Below, piece by piece: positions 46,090-55,938 of a stretch of DNA of 64,000 nt. The stretch is from NCBI RefSeq assembly GCF_003234175.2, contig NZ_CP126257.1, forward strand, positions 1,922,001 through 1,986,000, in the 5' to 3' direction. This DNA comes from Curtobacterium sp. MCSS17_007 (GTDB lineage Bacteria; Actinomycetota; Actinomycetes; Actinomycetales; Microbacteriaceae). The notes beneath the pieces are model-generated. The model searched no databases and had not been told where the DNA came from. It worked only from the letters and a program-made list of their open reading frames with translations. A program made the translations under genes and the position numbers. The stretch's first letter is position 1. Each line of letters starts with the position of its first letter.

Positions 46090-47328
46090 TCACGCCCGGG
46101 CCCACCCGCCGACGGTCTGCGCCACCAGGCCCTGCAGCTCTGCCAGCGCGAGTGCGTCGGCAACCTCGCCGAGTGACATCCCCGACCGGACGGCGAGTTC
46201 CTGCTCCCCCGATGCCCGCCGTCCGAGTGCGTCGAGCACGCGCAGCACCCCGGGGTCCTCCCGACCGGAGCGGAGCGGCTCACCGACCCCGGGCTCGCCG
46301 CCGACCCCGGCGGCACTCCCGTGGCCGACGACCGCGTCCACCGGGTCGCCTGGTCGCACCACGATCTGCGCCCGCCCCTCCGCCACCAACCGGTGACACC
46401 CGACCGACGCCGCGGACGAGAAGGCCCCCGGCACCGCGAACACCGGCCGCCCGAGCTGCCCGGCGTGGTGCGCGGTGTTCAGTGCCCCCGACCGCGCTCC
46501 CGCCTCGACCACCACGGTCGCCGCACCCAGGGCGGCGATGAGTCGGTTCCGCGCGAGGAACCGCCACCGTGAGGGCCGCGTCCCGGGCGGGGACTCGGCC
46601 AGCAGGGCGCCCTGCCGCGCGACGTCCCGGAGCAGGTCGGTGTTGCCCACCGGGTAGAGCTGGTCGATCCCGCCCGCGAGCACGGCGACCGTCGGGACGC
46701 CGGCGGCGACCGCGACACGGTGCGCGGTGGCGTCGATCCCGTAGGCGCCCCCGCTCACGACAGTGCACCCGGCGTCCGCCGCTGCCGAGGTGATCTCCGC
46801 CGCCGCCTCCGCGCCCGCGACCGTGTTCGCCCGCGACCCGACGACGGCTAGGGCGGCCGCCGTGGCGCGACGCCCCGACCGGGCCCACAGGACGACCGGA
46901 GCGTGCGGTCCGAGGTCGTCGACGCTCACGGGCCAACCGGGGTGGCCGGGCACGAGCAGCCGTGCGCCGACGGCCCGTGCCGCAGCGGCGACGCCCTGCA
47001 CGTCGCTGCGGTCGAGGCGGGGCGACCAGCGTCGGAGCGCCTCGTCGAGGGCCCGGGCGAACGCCCTGGGTGACTCGGTGCCGGGCAGTCCTGCGTCCCC
47101 GCACGACTCCAGCAGCATCCGGGTCCCGTCGTCGCCGGCCGCGTGGACCAGTGCGAGTGACCGTTCCGCACCGAGCCCCTGCACGAGCACCCCGGCGACG
47201 GCGTCCCCCGGCTCCACCACGGTCGACCACGCCATCCGTGCCGCCGCCTCGACCGGGTCGACAACGGCACAGCCGTCCGGGCCGAGCAGCGCCCGCACCG
47301 TGGGGAGCACGTCGACACCCCCGCTCAC
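46090..47328 (-). CDS. dprA: DNA-processing protein DprA
   Basis: DprA loads RecA onto incoming single-stranded DNA during natural transformation. The 412-residue protein has the Rossmann-like core ([51 protein letters not shown]) and a C-terminal winged-helix (DML1-type) domain. The GTG start overlaps the stop of comM by GTGA, so translation was coupled to comM. That upstream gene is now interrupted by a prophage. Confidence 0.95.
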
Positions 47329-47930
47329 AGGGCGCTCCGGAGGGCCAGGGCGTCGCGCACGTGGCGGTCGTCGGGACGGTCCGCGCCCTGCAGGTCCGCC
47401 AGGGTCCACGCCAGCCGCATGGTGCGGTCCCAGCCACGCATGGTGAGCGTGCCGAGGTCGAGCGCATGGTCGAGGAGTGTGGACGCGCCCGGCACGGCCC
47501 GCCCGGGCCCGCGGAGCCACGCCCCGGAGACCTCGGCGTTCCTGGTCCACCCGGTGCCCGCCAGACGGCTGCGCATCGCCGCCCGTGCCGCCGCGACCGT
47601 CGCACGCGCCTGCGCCGTCGTCGGGGTCGAACCGTCCTCGCCCCGGATGAGCCCGGTCGTGACCCGCGGCACCCGCACGCGGATGTCCATCCGGTCGAGC
47701 AGTGGCCCGCTCATCCGACCGAGGTACCGCCGCACGGTGGCCGGGGGGCACTCGCACGGCTGTCGGGACGACCCGGCGTTGCCGCACGGACAAGGGTTGG
47801 CGGCGAGCACGACCTGACAGCGCGCGGGGAACTCGGCGGCCCCGGCGGCCCGGTGGACGGTGATGCGACCGGACTCGAGCGGCTGGCGGAGCGCGTCGAG
47901 CACGGCGCGCGGGAACTCCGGTGCCTCGTC
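47325..47930 (-). pseudogene. comM: 3' fragment of comM/yifB (Mg-chelatase-like competence helicase), disrupted by prophage
   Basis: The fragment keeps the C-terminal 201 residues. It starts inside the Walker B/sensor region (DEAPEFPRAVLDALRQPLESG) and continues through NPCPCG and the Mg_chelatase C-terminal domain to ALRSAL. The N-terminal domain and Walker A are missing. Homology stops abruptly at the prophage junction. The reading frame stays open into phage DNA up to an ATG at 48059, giving a possible 244-residue chimera whose first 43 residues are phage-derived. ComM is the branch-migration helicase of natural transformation, and its 5' half should lie at the far end of the prophage. Confidence 0.88.
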
Positions 47931-47975
47931 GAAAGTTCGGTATCGCCTTGCGTTGTGAAAATCACCGCCCCTGTT
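47924..47975. other. Prophage attachment-site junction (one hybrid att site)
   Basis: comM homology ends at about 47930, where the expected ...FLDEAPEF coding sequence changes to phage sequence, and GC content falls to the right. The shared core is probably within TCGACGA (47927-47933). The exact crossover dinucleotide cannot be fixed without the other end. Confidence 0.65.
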
Positions 47976-48002
47976 GCCAGCCCCGTCCGGGCGTCCAATC
48001 TC

Positions 48003-48031
48003 TTGCCACGACCGGCCCGATGCCTCATAGT
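48003..48031 (+). promoter_or_regulatory. Integrase promoter (TTGCCA-N17-CATAGT)
   Basis: TTGCCA at 48003-48008 and CATAGT at 48026-48031 are separated by 17 bases and lie 11 bases before the integrase ATG. Confidence 0.6.
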
Positions 48032-48042
48032 GCGGGCCAGCA

Positions 48043-49479
48043 ATGAAGCGAGCAGCCATCTACGTCCGAATCTCTAGGGACCACGCGGGAGCGGGGCTCG
48101 GCGTCGAACGCCAGGAAGCCGACTGCCGGAAGCTGGCGGCGGAACGCGGCTGGGAAGTGGCCGCGGTCCTGTCCGACAACGACATCAGCGCTTACTCCGG
48201 CAAGCGACGACCGGGCTACGAGCAGCTGATCGGCCTGATCCAGACCGGCGACGTGGGCGCGGTGATCTCGTGGAGCCACGACCGCCTCCACCGCAGGCCG
48301 ACGGAACTCGAGTCCTATATAGACGTGTGCGACAAGGCCGGGATCGACACCTACACCGTGAAGGCCGGCCACTTCGATCTGTCCACTCCGAGCGGCCGTG
48401 CGGTCGCGCGTACCCTCGCGGCCTGGGCCGCCTATGAAGTGGAGACTTCAACCGGACGCGTCCTGGCGGCCAAGAAGCAGGCAGCCGAGTCAGGCAAGTG
48501 GCGGGGCGGCCAGCGCCCCTTCGGCTACGACGCTGACGGCATGACCGTAAGAGAGGAAGAAGCGGCGCTCGTCCGGGAGGCCGCGCAGCGGTTCGTACTC
48601 GGCGACTCATGGCGAACGGTCGCCCTCGATTGGAACACCCGGAAGATCGTCACGGCGAACGGCATGGCCTGGAACGCGCTCAAAGTGCGCAACCTCACGA
48701 TTAGGCTCCGGAACATCGGGATCGTCGATCACAACGGCACTGACCGCTACCCGGCCCAGTGGCCCGCGATCATTGATCAGGAACTCTGGGACCAGTTGCA
48801 GACGGCCATCGCGGTGAGCCGCAACGTCCACACGCAGCGCGGACCGTTCAGAAAGCACCTGCTCAAGGGCTTCGCGTACTGCGGAGAGTGCGGCAACCGC
48901 CTCAACGTGTACGGGACGAAGCGGGCTGGCGGACGTTACGAACCGGCCTACGGGTGCAGGAAGAACGACGACGAAAAAGGTCAGGTCGGTTGCGGCTCCG
49001 TAAAGCGCATGCTCGCGGCCGTCGACGATCTGGTTATCGACTCCCTCTTCTACCGGCTCGACACGGAGGACATGCACCAGGTGCTCTCAGACGCGTCTTC
49101 GGACAACGAAGCGCTGTCGACGCACCTTGCAGAGCTGCATGCCGCCACGCAGCGCCTGGAAGAGATCTACGGGCTCTTTGGAGCGGGCGAGATCGACTTC
49201 GCCGAGTACAAGGCGATGAAGGCTGCCGCGCACGAAGAGAAGGAACGCGCGTCACGGAAGGTGAACCAGTCGTCGGGCAAGGGGACCATCGCCAACGTCC
49301 CGGTCGGCAAGACGCTCCGCGAAGCGTGGGACGGCTCGGACCTCCAATGGAAGCGCCAGCTGTTGAGCGTCTTCATCGACCGCGTCGAGATCATGAAAGT
49401 GCCAAAGGGATCACCCCGCACCTTCTACAAGGGGTGGCAGTTCAATCCTGATCTGATTCAGATTCGTTGGAGGGCGTAG
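48043..49479 (+). CDS. int: Large serine recombinase (phage integrase)
   Basis: The 478-residue protein has the resolvase domain with catalytic Ser11 in YVRIS and the arginine-rich SWSHDRLHRRP segment. A recombinase domain and a zinc ribbon (CGECGNRL near residue 280 with further cysteines to about 320) follow, then a coiled coil (about 355-405). This is the layout of unidirectional phage integrases such as those of phiC31 and A118. It lies about 110 bases from the att junction, as usual. Excision would need a recombination directionality factor, which I cannot identify. Confidence 0.96.
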   Translation: MKRAAIYVRISRDHAGAGLGVERQEADCRKLAAERGWEVAAVLSDNDISAYSGKRRPGYEQLIGLIQTGDVGAVISWSHDRLHRRPTELESYIDVCDKAGIDTYTVKAGHFDLSTPSGRAVARTLAAWAAYEVETSTGRVLAAKKQAAESGKWRGGQRPFGYDADGMTVREEEAALVREAAQRFVLGDSWRTVALDWNTRKIVTANGMAWNALKVRNLTIRLRNIGIVDHNGTDRYPAQWPAIIDQELWDQLQTAIAVSRNVHTQRGPFRKHLLKGFAYCGECGNRLNVYGTKRAGGRYEPAYGCRKNDDEKGQVGCGSVKRMLAAVDDLVIDSLFYRLDTEDMHQVLSDASSDNEALSTHLAELHAATQRLEEIYGLFGAGEIDFAEYKAMKAAAHEEKERASRKVNQSSGKGTIANVPVGKTLREAWDGSDLQWKRQLLSVFIDRVEIMKVPKGSPRTFYKGWQFNPDLIQIRWRA

Positions 49480-49996
49480 CTGGCCCCTCATCCAGTCTCT
49501 GCATCGCACGCCTCACATAGGATGCGGCCACGTGCGCGTCGATGCTGGCTTCGATGCCGCGCCGGTCTCCTTCTTCTGCCGCCCATGAGATCGCGAAGAA
49601 CGAGACATCCGCCAACCAGCGCACGCCTCCTTCGCTCATGAATCGACGGAAGTACTCGTCGATCAGCGCGGCTCCGGATCGCTCAAGCCGCTGTACCGTG
49701 CGAACGCTGACGCCGAACCGCTTCGCTACCGACTCGCGTCTGTCCATGAGCGCTTCATTGACGTCAGCCTCCTCATTCAGATGACCGAAGTGAAACGCCG
49801 TCCTAAACGCCTGCACGGACGGGCTGTCAGGCGCGATGCGCAAGAACAGCTCCAGCAGCATGCGAAGCGATCGCTTGTCCGGAACGCCGAACAGCCCGGG
49901 ATCAACCGGGCCGTCGTCCCCGATCGTCCTGCGCATTGCCAGAAGGGTGTCGACCCTGGCCCATTCGGTCCGCTCTTCACTCGCGTCGGTGTCCAC
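49442..49996 (-). CDS. Putative phage immunity repressor/transcription regulator
   Basis: The 184-residue protein contains a helix-turn-helix (about 93-115: RRESVAKRFGVSVRTVQRLERSG). I chose the GTG at 49996 because an excellent promoter precedes it: TTGCCG, 17 bases, TAGCTT, with TAGCTT seven bases from the start, giving a leaderless message. Its divergent position opposite the early operon and beside the integrase fits a lysogeny repressor. I recognise no specific family outside the helix-turn-helix. Its 3' end overlaps the end of the integrase gene by 38 bases. Confidence 0.65.
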   Translation of the reverse strand: MDTDASEERTEWARVDTLLAMRRTIGDDGPVDPGLFGVPDKRSLRMLLELFLRIAPDSPSVQAFRTAFHFGHLNEEADVNEALMDRRESVAKRFGVSVRTVQRLERSGAALIDEYFRRFMSEGGVRWLADVSFFAISWAAEEGDRRGIEASIDAHVAASYVRRAMQRLDEGPATPSNESESDQD

Positions 49997-50003
49997 AGAC
50001 TCA

Positions 50004-50032
50004 AAGCTAGTCGCCCGGACATCGATCGGCAA
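50004..50032 (-). promoter_or_regulatory. Repressor promoter (TTGCCG-N17-TAGCTT)
   Basis: On the minus strand TTGCCG (50027-50032) and TAGCTT (50004-50009) are 17 bases apart. The GTG of the repressor follows seven bases later. Confidence 0.7.
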
Positions 50033-50053
50033 ACAGAGGACCGAGTTTGACTG

Positions 50054-50083
50054 TTGGTGACCAAAACGAGGAACCACTAGACA
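50054..50083 (+). promoter_or_regulatory. Early promoter with overlapping operator-like dyad
   Basis: TTGGTG (50054-50059), 18 bases and TAGACA (50078-50083) form a rightward promoter. The -35 box is part of a perfect dyad TTGGTGACCAA (50054-50064), a good candidate operator for the adjacent repressor. Confidence 0.5.
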
Positions 50084-50132
50084 GATAGCGTCCAAAGCCG
50101 TACGCTTGCGCCACCGATCAAAGGAGCAGGCC

Positions 50133-50369
50133 GTGAAGAAGCAGATCGCCCGGATCATCAGCGACCAGGTCGCCAACGGAGACACGGCCGTCATCGACGC
50201 CTTGCGCCAGCTCGCCGGGATGCCGGTCGGCTCGATCCAGATGGACCGGAGCTACGTGCGCCGCCGCGTCGTGGAGATCCAGCGCGATCAGAACGGCAAC
50301 GTCGTCGGCTCGATCGAACGAATCGAAGAGGCCGAGTCGGGCAGCTCGTCCGGCACCTGGCACCAGTAG
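50133..50369 (+). CDS. Small phage protein, first gene of the early operon
   Basis: The 78-residue protein starts at GTG 50133, seven bases after AAGGAG. It is a mix of a basic helical start (VKKQIARIISDQ) and a likely beta strand region (RRRVVEIQRDQNGNVVGS), ending in a Ser/Gly tail. I recognise no family. It is followed after 24 bases by the next small gene, which has its own ribosome site. Confidence 0.65.
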   Translation: MKKQIARIISDQVANGDTAVIDALRQLAGMPVGSIQMDRSYVRRRVVEIQRDQNGNVVGSIERIEEAESGSSSGTWHQ

Positions 50370-50393
50370 CGCTCACACACCAAGGAGACAGTC

Positions 50394-50591
50394 ATGTTCG
50401 AAACGATCCTCGTCCTCGCCTTCCTCATCGGGGCTGCCTGCCTCGGCGCGATCATCGGTCGCGTCTTCAAGAAGCTCGAAGCGGTCGAGCGCCGCAAGCT
50501 GATCGAGAAGCAGATGCGCCAGCAGATCATCGACGCTGAGAGCGAGCGCATCGCCGCCGAGAAGATCCTCCGTGAGAACGGACAAATCTGA
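50394..50591 (+). CDS. Small membrane protein with coiled-coil tail
   Basis: The 65-residue protein has an N-terminal membrane helix (about 3-23) followed by a charged helix (KKLEAVERRKLIEKQMR and on) that should form a cytoplasmic coiled coil. AAGGAG lies seven bases before the ATG. Its stop overlaps the start of the next gene. It could be a membrane anchor for the ATPase encoded downstream; that is inference. Confidence 0.65.
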   Translation: MFETILVLAFLIGAACLGAIIGRVFKKLEAVERRKLIEKQMRQQIIDAESERIAAEKILRENGQI

Positions 50592-50770
50592 TGAAGAAGG
50601 CGTGGGCGCTTCTCTGGTTCGTGGTCGTCGCGGTCTTCGCGATCTCGATCATCGCGGCCGTCATCAAGCCTTGGATTCCGGCCATCGCCGCGGTGATCGT
50701 CGTCGTCTTCCTGGTCGCCGTGGCGGTCTTCATCTGGCGGCGGTTCGCTGAGCGCCGCCGCTTCTTCTAA
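50591..50770 (+). CDS. Tiny two-span membrane protein
   Basis: The 59-residue protein starts MKKAWALLWF, has two hydrophobic helices (about 5-24 and 29-48) separated by KPW, and ends with the basic tail WRRFAERRRFF. It overlaps the stop of the preceding gene by one base (TGATG). The topology puts both ends in the cytoplasm. It lies directly before the VirD4-like ATPase gene. Function unknown. Confidence 0.6.
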   Translation: MKKAWALLWFVVVAVFAISIIAAVIKPWIPAIAAVIVVVFLVAVAVFIWRRFAERRRFF

Positions 50771-50803
50771 TTCCGCAGGCTACGTGTTTAAGTAGGTGCA
50801 GGC

Positions 50804-53047
50804 ATGAGATTCAAGCGCCAAACTAAAAGGGACGCGAATCGGGACGTATACCTCGTCACCTTCCCTACTGACCTCGCCGCCGAACGGGTGCTCGCCTGGC
50901 TCCGGTCTGTTAGCGGCACCCTTCCCAAACGCACCAACCGCTTCCTCGACTGGTCGACGCTCGCGTTCGAAACGTGGGCGTCGGCCAGAGGGATCGCTCA
51001 CCGCGTGCACGTTCCGAAGAGCGCGTCCGAATACGTGGCCTCCCAGCTGCGCACCTTGGCTCCCGGCATCACCGTGACGAAGGACGCCACCCGCCCCGGA
51101 GAGGACTGGACCGCGGGCCTCGAACTCGGGATGACGAGCCCGACCAGGCAGCTGCGCATCATGAGCCACAACGACCTGTCAGCGAGCGTCCTGGCGTCCG
51201 TTCAGTCCCTGGGATCAGACGAGGCGGTCATGATCCAGTGGGTGCTCGGCGCTGCCCGTCCCGAGATCCTTCCCGCGCGCGACGGCAACAGCCGGTCGGC
51301 CGAGTTCTCGATGAAGGCGTTGATCACTTCCGGTGTCCTGACCGCGCAGAACGACGAGCTCAACGACCGCCGGCAGAAGCTTGAAGAACCGAACCTCCTG
51401 GGCGTCGGCCGCGTCGTGGTGAAAGCGAACAACCCCAGGCGGGCCGGTGAGCTGATCTTGCGCGTCGAGTCTTCCCTTGCAGGAGCGAACAGCCCGGCCA
51501 ACCGGTTCAGGCGCACGGCCGCCAAGTCCGCCCGGGTCATCGCGGACGCGAAGGACGCCGCCACTCCCCTGCTCTTTCCCGGCCAGTTCAACCTCAAGGA
51601 ACTCGCCGCGGTGATCTCCTGGCCGATCGGCCAGCCGTTCGTCGCCGGTCTGCCGCAGGGCTCGACCAGGCACCTCTACGCGAACGAAGACATCGCGACC
51701 GAAGGCATCGTCATCGGCGACAGCAACTACCCGGGGCATGAGCGGCCGATCGCCCTCACCTTCGAGAAGGCCGTCCAGCACGTCTACTACGGCGGCAAGA
51801 CGGGCACCGGCAAGACCGTGGCGATGGCCAACAACTTCGGACAGGTCGTCAAGAACGGCTACGGCGCGATCGTGATCGACGCGTCCAACTCGAACTCGAG
51901 CGAAACCATGTTCAGCCGGGCCCTCAACCTGATCCCATCTGACCGCCTGGACGACGTGATCATCATGAACCCGAGCGAAGACGGGGACATGCCGGTCGGC
52001 TTCAACGTGCTCGACCAGGGAAGGCCGCGCGTCGTGGCCGACCAGATCAAAGACCTGTTCGCGCACCTCTACCAGGACACGGCGGGCGTCTGGACGAAGC
52101 AGCTGCTCTTCCACGGGCTCTACACGCTCGCCGAGCACGACGGCATGACGATCTCCGAACTGATGCCGCTGATCAACCCGCAAACCAAAGAAGAGGTCGC
52201 GTGGGCCGACGAGCTGAGGCGGGGAGTGCGCGACAAGGAACTCCGGAACTTCTGGAACAGGTGGGAGAACTTCAACCAGTCGGAGCGGGACCGCAACACG
52301 CAGCCGCTCATCAACCGCATGTGGCAGCTCGACGCCCGTCCGGAACTGCGCGGGATGCTCGGACAGGCCAAGTCGTCGTTCAAGGTGCAGGAAGTGCTGC
52401 GCGACAACAAGATCCTGCTGATCAGCTTGAACGGCCTGCCTCCCGGCACCGCGTCGATCCTCGGCACGCTGATCGTCAATGCCGTGTGGAGCGGAGCGCA
52501 GACGATGAGCCCCGACCGGCCGAACTTCCTGTACCTCGACGAGTTCCAGGTGATGACGCGGCTTCCGACCGGACTCGACGACATGCTGAACCGCTCGCGC
52601 AAGCATGGCCTCGGCGTCGTCATGGGAACCCAGTACCTCGAAGACGTGCCGGCCGAGTTGAAGAACGCGATCACGAACAACGCCAGGTCGCGGGTGATCT
52701 TCCAGTCCAGCGCGAAGGAAGCGCGCATGTGGAGCAGCGAGTTCGGCCGGACGCTAGACGAGAACGACTTCATGCGGATCAGGCAGTACGAGGCGGTCGC
52801 GGAGATCGCCACGGAGTCGGGCGTGACCGCTCCGGTCACGTTGAAGGCGCGGCCCCCGCTGACGCCGACGGGGCAGGCGAGGGCCGTGCGCGAACTGAGT
52901 CGGAAGACCTACGGGCGGCCGATCGGCGAAGTCGAGGACGACATGGAAAACAGGCGGCAGGCGACGGTCAAGGCCGTGAAGAGCAGGCCGATGATCGGGA
53001 TCAGGGCATGGGACGACGAACCAATAAACGGAAGGAGAACACGATGA
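50804..53047 (+). CDS. VirD4/TraG/HerA-like DNA-translocating ATPase
   Basis: The 747-residue protein has a divergent N-terminal region (about 1-290) and then a RecA-like motor of the type IV coupling-protein/HerA group. Walker A is GGKTGTGKT (about 329-337), Walker B is FLYLDEFQ (about 575-582), and GTQYLEDVP (about 607) matches the sensor glutamine motif. Unlike typical coupling proteins it has no N-terminal membrane helices; two tiny membrane proteins are encoded just upstream instead. The stop overlaps the next start (ATGA). It probably pumps or remodels DNA. Whether for conjugation, replication or packaging is unknown. Confidence 0.85.
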   Translation: MRFKRQTKRDANRDVYLVTFPTDLAAERVLAWLRSVSGTLPKRTNRFLDWSTLAFETWASARGIAHRVHVPKSASEYVASQLRTLAPGITVTKDATRPGEDWTAGLELGMTSPTRQLRIMSHNDLSASVLASVQSLGSDEAVMIQWVLGAARPEILPARDGNSRSAEFSMKALITSGVLTAQNDELNDRRQKLEEPNLLGVGRVVVKANNPRRAGELILRVESSLAGANSPANRFRRTAAKSARVIADAKDAATPLLFPGQFNLKELAAVISWPIGQPFVAGLPQGSTRHLYANEDIATEGIVIGDSNYPGHERPIALTFEKAVQHVYYGGKTGTGKTVAMANNFGQVVKNGYGAIVIDASNSNSSETMFSRALNLIPSDRLDDVIIMNPSEDGDMPVGFNVLDQGRPRVVADQIKDLFAHLYQDTAGVWTKQLLFHGLYTLAEHDGMTISELMPLINPQTKEEVAWADELRRGVRDKELRNFWNRWENFNQSERDRNTQPLINRMWQLDARPELRGMLGQAKSSFKVQEVLRDNKILLISLNGLPPGTASILGTLIVNAVWSGAQTMSPDRPNFLYLDEFQVMTRLPTGLDDMLNRSRKHGLGVVMGTQYLEDVPAELKNAITNNARSRVIFQSSAKEARMWSSEFGRTLDENDFMRIRQYEAVAEIATESGVTAPVTLKARPPLTPTGQARAVRELSRKTYGRPIGEVEDDMENRRQATVKAVKSRPMIGIRAWDDEPINGRRTR

Positions 53048-53319
53048 GCGAGCAGATGAATCAGAACGGCGGGGAAGCCGAGATCGAGCGGGCGCTGTAC
53101 TGGATCGACGAAGGAATCCGCGCGGCGGAAGCTCTGGCGCGCCACCTGCGCATGGCCCGCTCTATGACGGAGGAACTGCGCGAACGGCAGCTCACCGAAA
53201 ACGGGGCGAAGAACATTGAGATTATGGGCAGTGCCATGCGCGTGGTCACCGAACACGTGGAACGCGGATCGAACGGGCTCACGATGTTCTTCAAAAACTC
53301 TAAGAGGACGGGATCATGA
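53044..53319 (+). CDS. Small helical phage protein
   Basis: The 91-residue protein is predicted almost all helical (IERALYWIDEGIRAAEALARHLRMAR and similar), with an acidic start and a basic end. It overlaps both neighbours by four bases (ATGA), so it is tightly coupled to the ATPase upstream and the gene downstream. A role as accessory subunit is inferred only from this. No family recognised. Confidence 0.65.
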   Translation: MSEQMNQNGGEAEIERALYWIDEGIRAAEALARHLRMARSMTEELRERQLTENGAKNIEIMGSAMRVVTEHVERGSNGLTMFFKNSKRTGS

Positions 53320-53903
53320 TCAAGCGGCAGGAAACGCTGTGGGGCGCGAGCATCTACGACGGACTCCAGCACGACCCGAGACACGCGTTCGTCCTGGCCT
53401 CCTACTCCGCCTTCAAGCGCGTCGTAATGAGCCAGTGGACGCAGCTGATCGACGGCGGTTTGAAGTTCGTGGCCAACAAGGACGACCCGTACGCCGACTC
53501 GTCCGAGATGCGCCGCGACGTGGAAGACAAGCTGACGCTCCGGGTCTACGCGGACAACGGCGGCTCGCTTCCTGACGACCATCCGATGCGTCAGAAAGTG
53601 GAGTCGGGGATCGAAGGGTTCGTCGTTCTGAACGACGTCTTCCGCGGCGTGCACGACGTCATGGGACACGTACTCTCGGGCGGCAGCTTCGGACCGAAGG
53701 GCGAGCAGTTGGCGTGGGCGACTCACCGCGACACGATGCCCCGGTTGGCTCACAACGCGCTCTGGTGCGAGACGGTCGGGCAGAACATGTGGACCAACTT
53801 CGCGGGCGATCACGAGTCGCTTCCGATGGCCGAGCGGCCGTTCGGAGAGCAGAAGGCGGGGCTGGTCCCGGCGTTCCTGGTGGAGGCGCGTCTGCACGCG
53901 TGA
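53316..53903 (+). CDS. Phage protein with VHD-x3-H / GE / GQNxW motif domain
   Basis: The 195-residue protein carries FRGVHDVMGH (109-118), SFGPKGEQLAW (124-134) and CETVGQNMW (151-159). The pattern of His113, Asp114, His118, Glu130, His137 and Glu152 suggests a metal site. From memory, this combination recurs in uncharacterised phage proteins and in large polyvalent proteins of mobile elements; I know no assigned activity. It is the last gene of the early operon, coupled to the preceding gene by ATGA. Confidence 0.7.
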   Translation: MIKRQETLWGASIYDGLQHDPRHAFVLASYSAFKRVVMSQWTQLIDGGLKFVANKDDPYADSSEMRRDVEDKLTLRVYADNGGSLPDDHPMRQKVESGIEGFVVLNDVFRGVHDVMGHVLSGGSFGPKGEQLAWATHRDTMPRLAHNALWCETVGQNMWTNFAGDHESLPMAERPFGEQKAGLVPAFLVEARLHA

Positions 53904-53917
53904 GGGGGCGCTACCCA

Positions 53918-54050
53918 CCACTCCCCTACTCCGCCCTTGAAACGCGATGTAATAGGGGTGACACCACTCCCCTACCCTACCGAAGAGGGGTGCGTAACAG
54001 AGGTCAGCGTTGTAAATCCTACAAGTGGGGTAAAAACCGGTAGGGGAGTG
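53918..54050. repeat. Iteron-like CACTCCCCTAC repeats
   Basis: CCACTCCCCTAC occurs directly at 53918-53929 and 53964-53975, and the same 11-mer is inverted at 54040-54050. A partial copy, TAGGGGTG, lies at about 53953. The region is non-coding and lies between the early operon and lsr2. It could be operator sites or an origin. Confidence 0.75.
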
Positions 54051-54051
54051 C

Positions 54052-54089
54052 AAAAAGAGGGGATCGGCCTTCGCCGAACCCCTCTTTTT
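54052..54089. terminator. Bidirectional intrinsic terminator
   Basis: AAAAAGAGGGG... at 54052 pairs with ...CCCCTCTTTTT ending at 54089 (17-bp stem with one mismatch, CTTC loop). Both strands end in a T run. It separates the rightward early operon from leftward lsr2. Confidence 0.95.
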
Positions 54090-54101
54090 GACGTGAACTA
54101 C

Positions 54102-54440
54102 TTACTTGTTCGCGGCGTAGTACGCGTCCTTCACGGACTGTGAGATCCGGCCGCGCGACGACACCTCGTGGCCGTTCGCAGCGGCCCACTCGCGGATGGC
54201 AGTCAGGTCTTCCGAGTTGTTGCGCGCGGGCTTGGAAGCCGAGCCCGACGAACGGCCGACGCGCCGCGCGGAAGCCACGTAGTCGGACAGCGCGTCGCGC
54301 AGCTTGTCCTTGTTCGCGTCGGACAGGTCGATCTCATAGCTGGTGCCGTCGAAGCCGAACTGGACCGTGCCGCCCTTGCCGTCTTCGATCGGCGCGCCGT
54401 CCAGGTCGTCGATGAGCGTCGTGGTGACCTTCTGAGCCAT
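54102..54440 (-). CDS. lsr2: Lsr2-like nucleoid-associated xenogeneic silencer
   Basis: The 112-residue protein has the Lsr2 layout: N-terminal dimerisation domain (MAQKVTTTLIDDLDG, then VQFGFDGTSYEIDLS) and a C-terminal DNA-binding domain (IREWAAANGHEVSSRGRIS) with the minor-groove AT-hook-like RGR at 96-98. Host Lsr2 silences AT-rich foreign DNA; phage copies are thought to modulate that silencing or maintain lysogeny. GAAGGA lies before the ATG. It probably has its own promoter in the 54441-54503 gap (TATGCT is a possible -10 box). Confidence 0.95.
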   Translation of the reverse strand: MAQKVTTTLIDDLDGAPIEDGKGGTVQFGFDGTSYEIDLSDANKDKLRDALSDYVASARRVGRSSGSASKPARNNSEDLTAIREWAAANGHEVSSRGRISQSVKDAYYAANK

Positions 54441-54603: not shown

Positions 54604-54906
54604 CTACTGCTTCGACTTGTAGATGCCGAACATGGTCAGTATGAACGCGCCTGCAGTTGCGAGCAGGCCGCTGAGCGCCACGATGCGGATCAAGTCGGTG
54701 AAGCCGAGCACGACCGCAAGGCCAGGCGCGACCAGACCGAGGCCGATGAGAGAGTCACCGACTACGTAGACGATGACCTTGGTTTTCTTCGAGATGCCTG
54801 ACTGGATCTCCGCTACCACGTCGCTCGCCTGGACGTCGTCAGCGAGCTTCTGCGCGCTCTGTGTTGCTACTTGGAGTTGCTTCTGTTCTGCTTCGCTGAA
54901 TGCCAT
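54604..54906 (-). CDS. Nested holin translated from an internal start
   Basis: In the same frame as the endolysin fusion, ATG at 54906 (MAFSEAEQKQ) is preceded by AAAGGAG (54916-54922) with a nine-base spacing, better than many real starts here. The 100-residue product would be a stand-alone two-helix holin with a coiled-coil head and basic tail. The strong ribosome site inside a proline-rich linker is unlikely to be chance, but translation is not proven. Confidence 0.6.
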   Translation of the reverse strand: MAFSEAEQKQLQVATQSAQKLADDVQASDVVAEIQSGISKKTKVIVYVVGDSLIGLGLVAPGLAVVLGFTDLIRIVALSGLLATAGAFILTMFGIYKSKQ

Positions 54907-55938
54907 CTTGGTTGGCTCCTTTGCTGGTTCGTTAGTAGTTGGTTCTTTCGTCGGTTGTTGAGCCGGTTCAGGCTCATCTGCCGGTGGTTGCTCTGGCTCC
55001 GGTTGAGCGGCCGGTTCTTCCGCGGGCTGTTGCGCGGGCGGAGTCTCCGGCGCCGGCTGTTCGGCCGGTGCGGGCTGAGGCGCTGCAACTGACGGACGCT
55101 TGCCTGGAACGGGAGTTCCGCCGTCGGTGCCCGCGACCTCCGTCGCCTTGGCAATGTCGACCCAAAACTTGTAGACGTTCCATTGGATGAGGGCCAACCA
55201 CATGCCGCCGCTCTGGCCGAGATCAAGCACCTGGTGCTTGCCCGGCAGAACGAATCGAGATCCTGGGTTCAAGTCCTGATCGTCCGTGGCGTAGCCGTCA
55301 GCGTCCACCTCGACGAGCGGTTCGGCCGGCACGCCGTTGTCATCCCAGGTCGGGTCGACAGGGCATAGATCGTTGCTCAACACCTGCCAGAGTCCGCCCT
55401 GTAGCTCGACCTTCGACACCGTGAGCGGGTCGGCGAACTTGATGAACGAACCGACGTCCACGTTCTGATCCGTCGGGTTGCCTACGGGACCCGGAGCGTC
55501 TGAGCCCGCGTAGCGGTAGAAGGTCTGCTCCGGGTAGTCGTTCCAAGCGCGCAGCTGGTCGTAGTTATCGATCTTGATCCCGGCGACCCGGCAGTTGATC
55601 ACCCGATCGGCGTCGATGAAGAACATGTAGTGACCGGCGGCTCCCCCGCTTGCTCCGCGCTTGCCCCAGATCGCAGCGTCGCCTTTCCTGGTGTCGTAGT
55701 TCCCCTGAGCGTTCGGTTTGATCTGCACCCAGCCGTTCGCCTCGAAGTCGCGGAACATCGTGTCCGTGTTGCCGATGCGCAGACCGGCAGGCAGGAGTCC
55801 CGCTGCTTCGAGCGAGAAGTACCCCGCGCTTGAACAGTCGAAGCTGTTCGGACCGAAACGGCTCGTCATCGAGTACGTGATGCCCCGCGCTTGCTGCGTC
55901 AGGTACCAGTTTATTGCTATGTTGAACTTTGCATCCAT
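54604..55938 (-). CDS. Endolysin fused to a holin-like membrane domain
   Basis: The 444-residue protein starts with a peptidoglycan-hydrolase domain of the NlpC/P60 superfamily (Amidase_5-like). Catalytic Cys35 is in FDCSSAGYF and His103 in AAGHYMF, with GDAAIWGKRG between. A middle domain (about 165-270) may bind the cell wall. A Pro/Glu/Gln-rich linker (about 276-344) leads to residues 345-444 with two membrane helices (about 373-395 and 402-424), a holin-like module. The ATG follows AGGAGG by four bases, which overlaps the stop of the upstream membrane gene. Internal initiation at residue 345 looks possible. Confidence 0.85.
   Translation of the reverse strand: MDAKFNIAINWYLTQQARGITYSMTSRFGPNSFDCSSAGYFSLEAAGLLPAGLRIGNTDTMFRDFEANGWVQIKPNAQGNYDTRKGDAAIWGKRGASGGAAGHYMFFIDADRVINCRVAGIKIDNYDQLRAWNDYPEQTFYRYAGSDAPGPVGNPTDQNVDVGSFIKFADPLTVSKVELQGGLWQVLSNDLCPVDPTWDDNGVPAEPLVEVDADGYATDDQDLNPGSRFVLPGKHQVLDLGQSGGMWLALIQWNVYKFWVDIAKATEVAGTDGGTPVPGKRPSVAAPQPAPAEQPAPETPPAQQPAEEPAAQPEPEQPPADEPEPAQQPTKEPTTNEPAKEPTKMAFSEAEQKQLQVATQSAQKLADDVQASDVVAEIQSGISKKTKVIVYVVGDSLIGLGLVAPGLAVVLGFTDLIRIVALSGLLATAGAFILTMFGIYKSKQ

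What the first reader, a model, noticed from the sequence alone, without database searches (positions are those of the whole stretch)
50133..53903. Phage early operon built around a VirD4/HerA-like ATPase with separate tiny membrane proteins
Seen: six rightward genes, the second and third abutting and the last three joined by ATGA overlaps. Two encode 65- and 59-residue membrane proteins, one a 747-residue coupling-protein-like ATPase without its own membrane helices, then a 91-residue helical protein and a VHD-x3-H domain protein. Where replication genes are expected next to the repressor, this operon is found instead. Inference: the membrane anchor normally fused to such ATPases may be supplied in trans, forming a phage-encoded DNA-pumping machine for replication, superinfection control or cell-to-cell transfer of the prophage. 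I know no described system with exactly this set.
Basis: partly seen in the sequence, partly recalled or inferred. Interest (0 to 1): 0.8.

Follow-up and report, generated by a model that had tools for sequence, protein, structure and literature searches.

The report
Phage-borne DNA pump and relaxase module
A group of bacterial viruses lodged in actinobacterial chromosomes carries a membrane DNA pump together with a matching DNA-nicking protein, the same set that forms the core of small mobile elements in related bacteria, so these viruses may copy or perhaps even pass on their DNA in a plasmid-like way.

The parts
47325..48059 (-). C-terminal half of a ComM/YifB-like gene, cut by the prophage (N-terminal half at L035:7174-8436, minus strand); left end of the ~43-kb prophage is near 47930-48043 (inferred)
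   Evidence: ComM name recalled from the sequence, no profile run
48043..49479 (+). serine integrase (Resolvase + Recombinase + Zn ribbon)
   Evidence: PF00239 1.7e-27; phrog_95 2.3e-102
49442..50194 (-). putative repressor, weak HTH; true start probably further in, as the frame overlaps orfA
   Evidence: best HTH_23 E 0.0079, below cut-off
50133..50369 (+). orfA, small soluble protein (78 aa from GTG 50133)
   Evidence: position-matched, weakly similar frames from 7 other loci aligned
50394..50591 (+). B: 65-aa single-pass membrane protein with a charged helix after the membrane segment
   Evidence: one-pass B-like frame in 15 of 16 loci, a 104-aa two-TM frame in L050
50591..50770 (+). C: 59-aa membrane hairpin with a basic-aromatic C-terminus
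   Evidence: two-TM C in 12 of 16 phage-type loci and in 21 of 21 element-type loci that have Replic_Relax and hold 600 or more bases upstream
50804..53047 (+). ATPase (747 aa), TrwB/VirD4/VirB4-type motor; G331 G334 G336 K337, D579 E580 and R599 invariant in 55 aligned proteins
53044..53319 (+). 91-aa helical protein, no known family
   Evidence: a small protein in the same place in L042 (homology not tested)
53316..53903 (+). VHD protein: stand-alone copy of a domain found in large polyvalent phage proteins; H89, H113, D114, H118, H137, E152 invariant in 23 sequences, perhaps a metal site
54051..54090 (.). hairpin with A/T-rich flanks, possible bidirectional terminator between operon and Lsr2
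54102..54440 (-). phage Lsr2, facing the operon; start of the leftward genes
   Evidence: PF11774 4.9e-27

Best explanation
The operon is the motor half of a relaxase-translocase module carried by temperate phages of actinobacteria. Shown by computation: the ATPase is a TrwB/VirD4/VirB4-type motor whose relatives co-occur with a Replic_Relax (MOBC-superfamily) protein; in this prophage that protein is encoded 29 kb away beside a DnaA box; small one- and two-pass membrane proteins B and C go with the ATPase. Inferred: after excision, Replic_Relax nicks the origin beside its own gene; B and C dock the ATPase hexamer at the inside of the membrane; the ATPase takes up the nicked strand or relaxosome and pumps DNA. 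The most likely use is conjugation-like mobilisation of the excised phage genome (alone or through a channel of another element), because the same set is the core of small integrative elements in which I recognised no virion gene, and because the prophage also encodes a protein with the ssDNA-binding ArdC-N domain that is frequent in conjugative elements.
Against: No mating-channel gene was recognised, though only part of the prophage's proteins was scanned; the phage has virion genes and does not need conjugation; an exact DnaA box 136-210 bp upstream of Replic_Relax in 6 of 13 phage loci, and its place beside early recombination genes, fit a replication origin at least as well; PHROG names its relatives replication initiators. 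The ATPase tree also agrees moderately with the integrase tree (r 0.51, 15 of 1000, n 8), and Lsr2 is short, so its tree is noisy. The metallopeptidase part of the ArdC-N protein is below its cut-off (24.0 of 27.5). No oriT was identified.
Confidence: 0.45

Rival explanations
1. Replication and segregation module: Replic_Relax is the phage's nicking replication initiator at a DnaA-box origin; the membrane-docked ATPase clears, tethers or segregates replicating phage DNA. No cell-to-cell transfer.
For: Exact TTATNCACA 136-210 bp upstream of the conserved Replic_Relax start in 6 of 13 phage loci (background 28 in 333,275 bp of loci held, duplicates included); in the window prophage it is the only exact one and 4 of its 18 TCCACA motifs lie within 120 bp there; phrog_9381 'replication initiation by nicking' 2.7e-9; no polymerase, primase, helicase or other initiator among the right-arm proteins scanned.
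Against: The elements in L088-L092 keep ATPase, Replic_Relax and C with no exact DnaA box beside Replic_Relax (L089 has two elsewhere in its 20 kb); a VirD4-type pump is not otherwise needed for replication (established knowledge); the ArdC-N protein points to ssDNA entry.
Confidence: 0.33
2. Superinfection exclusion or anti-phage defence: a translocase plus a PD-(D/E)XK-type nuclease, like HerA-nuclease pairs, sits at the membrane and attacks or blocks incoming DNA.
Against: The other eight of ten proteins scanned gave no PADLOC match; Replic_Relax belongs to a relaxase superfamily (PMC5357655 and PMC12857230, passages); the module lies near integrases in L088-L091.
Confidence: 0.12
3. Remnant of a captured integrative element with no present function in the phage.
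For: Phages of this group are mosaic (Lsr2 and late-gene trees disagree with the ATPase tree).
Against: Walker A/B and R599 invariant in 55 aligned proteins; intact frames and tight gene coupling; correlated evolution with Replic_Relax over 29 kb.
Confidence: 0.05

Closest known systems
Bacillus Tyroviruses (Thrax phages): gp17 type IV secretion protein, gp18 replication-relaxation protein
   Same: temperate phage with a T4SS-type protein and a Replic_Relax protein, read by the authors as acquired possibly from a conjugative plasmid (PMC9703825, passages)
   Different: 160-170 kb Bacillus phages with their own replisome and ParM; genes adjacent by number; no B/C cassette mentioned in the passages read; no sequence inspected
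Bacillus pumilus phages Novomoskovsk and Bolokhovo: TrbC/VirB2, Replic_Relax, FtsK/SpoIIIE
   Same: small T4SS-type protein, translocase and Replic_Relax in one phage (PMC9658697, passages)
   Different: FtsK-type motor; other hosts; the authors suggest lost plasmid-prophage ability
CloDF13-type MOBC mobilisation (MobC relaxase, MobB coupling protein)
   Same: MOBC relaxase (PMC12857230, passages) with its own T4CP (PMC7431656 seen in the search listing only; role otherwise recalled)
   Different: plasmid of Enterobacter; no B/C cassette known to me
Actinobacterial element-type loci found here (L088-L092 at 20 kb; L004-L030 at short range)
   Same: C, ATPase and Replic_Relax; in the 20-kb stretches also a methylase with a DPPW-type motif (MT-A70 by Pfam in L088), B and an A-like frame in L088, L089 and L091, and in L088-L091 a serine or tyrosine integrase
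   Different: relaxase gene directly after the ATPase; no virion gene recognised; ATPase mostly 26-30% identical to the window's
AICEs (FtsK/SpoIIIE type) of Actinobacteria
   Same: DNA transfer by a single motor in actinobacteria (PMC3218068, abstract and passages)
   Different: FtsK/SpoIIIE motor for double-stranded DNA; that survey limited its T4SS-type search to MOBF relaxases, so loci like these were outside it

Membership tests
VirD4/TrwB type IV coupling protein | conserved nucleotide-binding domain with Walker A and B | tested here: met
   G331 G334 G336 K337, D579 E580 invariant in 55 sequences; PF10412 42 bits, cut-off 20.5; TraD models only below cut-off, E 5e-6 and 9e-6
VirD4/TrwB type IV coupling protein | helical (all-alpha) domain inserted in the motor, TrwB-like fold | tested here: met
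VirD4/TrwB type IV coupling protein | N-terminal transmembrane domain (in most members) | tested here: not met
   none in this protein; 30 of 107 homologues have a hydrophobic helix in the first 45 residues
VirD4/TrwB type IV coupling protein | cognate relaxase | tested here: met
   by co-occurrence only: Replic_Relax in the same prophage and in genomes; no biochemical test
VirD4/TrwB type IV coupling protein | works with a T4SS channel | tested here: inconclusive
   none recognised among the proteins scanned; not all prophage proteins were scanned
VirB4 (T4SS assembly ATPase) | VirB4 sequence profile | tested here: inconclusive
HerA/FtsK translocases | Pfam HerA or FtsK profile over cut-off | tested here: not met
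Phage large terminase | is the packaging motor of this phage | tested here: not met
   separate TerL at L033:9486-11024 (phrog_2 3.1e-20). Against: phrog_2666, labelled terminase, matches the ATPase at 1.1e-10 (best stretch 566-648); its best PHROG is phrog_5156, unknown function, 8.8e-42
MOBC relaxase superfamily (Replic_Relax) | PF13814 over cut-off | tested here: met
   71.3 bits, cut-off 25.3
MOBC relaxase superfamily (Replic_Relax) | PD-(D/E)XK-like acidic residues (motif recalled) | tested here: met
   in the alignment PD is in every row; E.D and a following E in all rows but L077 and the truncated L078
MOBC relaxase superfamily (Replic_Relax) | nicks a defined oriT | not testable with these tools
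   no oriT identified
MADS defence system (mad8) | the other mad components present | tested here: inconclusive
   of ten proteins scanned only the two ATPases match, with mad8 or HerA; the rest of the prophage and elements was not scanned against PADLOC

The most novel reading that the evidence does not exclude
These are temperate phages with a second route of spread: a minimal self-transfer machine (one ATPase, two tiny membrane proteins, one MOBC-type relaxase) that can move the excised phage genome between touching cells without a virion, the same machine being the whole transfer apparatus of ~9-kb actinobacterial integrative elements.
Probability: 0.22. Interest if true: 0.87.

Novelty: new variant of a known kind. 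Interest (0 to 1): 0.62.

Why it matters
It turns an odd phage operon into a testable relaxase-pump pair shared by a phage lineage and by small integrative elements. If it moves DNA between cells, phages would have a virion-free route and actinobacteria a very small conjugation machine; if it serves replication, it would show how a nicking initiator can work with a membrane pump. Either way it suggests a role for ATPases now filed as 'unknown function' (phrog_5156) and for the small membrane proteins beside them.

Tried and rejected

Iteron idea: CACTCCCCTAC twice direct and once inverted at 53919-54050, no other exact copy in the prophage; not looked for in relatives. An inverted repeat upstream of Replic_Relax in the window phage was not seen conserved in two relatives aligned. 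Among 50,697 named phage records only 4 match the ATPase, at 21.8-26.3% identity over 31-50% (two records are phage G); among plasmids 47 records, all below 60% identity, none covering 80%, many haloarchaeal; this phage's Replic_Relax had no match in the phage records. Neighbours of the phage G and Goe26 matches show no annotated Replic_Relax. The homologue search scored only 7992 candidates. Homology of phage C and element C rests on weak profile matches of membrane sequences (hhalign probability 91) and on position. Papers: searches (open-licence library only) listed none on this module in actinophages, judged by titles and abstract starts; on MADS found nothing.
Full report
WHAT IS THERE. 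The window lies at G000:C1:1922001-1986000 of a 3.31-Mb genome. A serine integrase at 48043-49479 sits against the C-terminal half of a ComM/YifB-like gene whose N-terminal half is at L035:7174-8436, so the prophage spans about 43 kb, of which the window shows the first 16. Beyond the window it has terminase, portal and head genes (the tape measure gene is in the window), a D12-class methylase, then Replic_Relax leftward at L033:18084-18914 and, rightward, ERF, a protein with ArdC-N (its metallopeptidase part is below cut-off) and a PDDEXK nuclease.

THE SMALL MEMBRANE PROTEINS. Sixteen loci of the window's type hold sequence upstream of the ATPase: window, L001, L034, L037-L043, L045-L050 (L044 held only 9 bases there and appears to repeat L039). 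Eight of them are virus records (L001, L043, L045-L050); of the other eight, the window and all but L037 also match phage genes of the window's prophage such as Lsr2; L037 does not, and is called phage-type by its place in the tree. A one-pass B-like frame is present in 15 and a 104-aa two-TM frame in L050; a two-TM C in 12, a divergent membrane frame at that place in L040, L041 and L046, none in L039. Nine of the 16 ATPases have a predicted N-terminal helix (L034, L038, L040, L041, L043, L045, L047, L048, L049) and still keep B and a C or C-like frame. So the small proteins are not just a cut-off anchor. TM calls are by hydrophobicity only.

THE PARTNER. Replic_Relax (PF13814) was found in 14 of 17 genomes or records holding the ATPase, 7 of 9 virus records and 7 of 8 genomes, and in 0 of 14 control genomes. 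PF13814 is the MOBC superfamily in work on streptococcal IMEs (PMC5357655, passage); MOBC relaxases are related to PD-(D/E)XK restriction endonucleases (PMC12857230, passages). In the same 398 genomes of the family an ATPase relative is in 29 and Replic_Relax over cut-off in 27 (30 at E 0.001); comparing the lists, all 27 are among the 29, the two without being G266 and G328. In L004-L030, 24 of 27 loci gave both frames; Replic_Relax follows the ATPase on the same strand in all 24, 67-238 bp downstream in 23 and overlapping in one. Across 296 genomes of the class, 50 of 54 listed ATPase matches of 200 bits or more have Replic_Relax within 3 kb downstream. In the window's phage the distance is 29 kb.

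DO THEY BELONG TOGETHER IN PHAGES? Trees of both proteins split phage-type from element-type loci (36 pairs, distance correlation 0.93). Deep splits inflate that number; the test that counts is within 12 phage-type loci: ATPase-Replic_Relax r 0.71 (0 of 1000 permutations reach it), against ATPase-Lsr2 0.15 (187 of 1000, n 11), ATPase-integrase 0.51 (15 of 1000, n 8), and 0.05 and 0.30 for two leftward genes of the late region (n 6 each); on the same subsets ATPase-Replic_Relax is 0.73-0.78. Limits: small subsets, Lsr2 is short, and the integrase value is not low.

THE ELEMENTS. Five 20-kb stretches show a methylase with a DPPW-type motif, C, ATPase and Replic_Relax in one direction, with B and an A-like frame upstream in L088, L089 and L091 (in L090 and L092 my frame caller gave no B); MT-A70 was confirmed by Pfam in L088. 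A serine recombinase lies in L088, L089 and L091 and a tyrosine integrase in L090; in L092 two proteins were scanned and neither is an integrase. I recognised no virion gene by eye, nor among 14 proteins scanned. In L088 the set spans about 9 kb from the recombinase to a divergent gene; the ends were not mapped. A two-TM frame of at most 90 aa lies upstream of the ATPase in 21 of 21 loci that have Replic_Relax and hold 600 or more bases there, against 35 of 960 random windows. L028 and L029, which lack Replic_Relax, lack it too, though L028 holds only 339 bases upstream (L029: 810).

AN ORIGIN BESIDE REPLIC_RELAX. The one exact TTATNCACA of the 43-kb prophage is at L033:18918; 4 of 18 TCCACA motifs lie within 120 bp there. 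Among 13 phage loci an exact box lies 136-210 bp upstream of the conserved Replic_Relax start in 6, a TCCACA at 134-172 bp in 3 more, neither in 4; background 28 exact boxes in 333,275 bp of phage loci held, duplicates included. In L088-L092 no exact box lies beside Replic_Relax, though L089 has two elsewhere. This speaks for an origin and is the main reason why I keep the replication reading close behind transfer.

VHD. The VHD protein is a stand-alone copy of a domain found in large polyvalent phage proteins: 22 matches at E 0.001 or better among viral models, a few so named, and 200 named phage records, 187 of Mycobacterium; no solved structure matches. Of 27 module-bearing genomes only the window's own has it by profile. 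Polyvalent proteins are thought to be delivered with DNA by conjugation or phage injection, and ArdC-N to bind ssDNA (PMC5512222, passages).

HOW IT MOST LIKELY WORKS. Nick by Replic_Relax at the origin next to its gene; docking of the ATPase at the membrane through B and C; pumping of DNA. Every step after the pairing is inference. I put transfer at 0.45, replication or segregation at 0.33, defence at 0.12, remnant at 0.05.

NOVELTY. A T4SS-type protein with a replication-relaxation protein in phages is in print for Bacillus Tyroviruses and, with an FtsK-type motor, for B. pumilus phages. What my searches did not list (open-licence papers, listings and passages only) is this actinophage lineage, the A-B-C cassette, the separation of relaxase and motor by 29 kb with correlated evolution, and the link to small actinobacterial elements. 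New variant of a known kind.

Noticed in passing
window 47325-48059 and L035:7174-8436: The prophage interrupts a ComM/YifB-like gene next to a DprA-like frame (46090-47793): a competence-type locus as attachment site. Names recalled from sequence.
   Followed up: partly
window 53919-54050: CACTCCCCTAC twice direct and once inverted between the VHD gene and the terminator; no other exact copy in the prophage.
   Followed up: partly
L033:18870-18990: Cluster of DnaA-box-like motifs upstream of Replic_Relax; an exact box in a similar place in 5 of 12 other phage loci.
   Followed up: yes
L088:6969-16121: Possible very small integrative element: serine recombinase, Replic_Relax, ATPase, C, MT-A70 methylase, a 192-aa protein, B and a small upstream protein. 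Ends not mapped.
   Followed up: partly
window 54604-55938: Endolysin (Amidase_5, ZoocinA_TRD) with a hydrophobic C-terminal stretch, perhaps membrane-tethered.
   Followed up: no
G308:C3:521065-523275 and G308:C4:28600-30810: Two ATPase copies (44% identical to the window's) with the same score in one genome, each with a Replic_Relax on its contig.
   Followed up: no
window 50804-53047: PADLOC mad8 (MADS) matches both the phage and an element ATPase: the defence protein may be a relative of this motor group.
   Followed up: no
L037: One of the six genome relatives is labelled an Acidobacteria MAG, the others are Actinobacteria; perhaps a misplaced contig.
   Followed up: no
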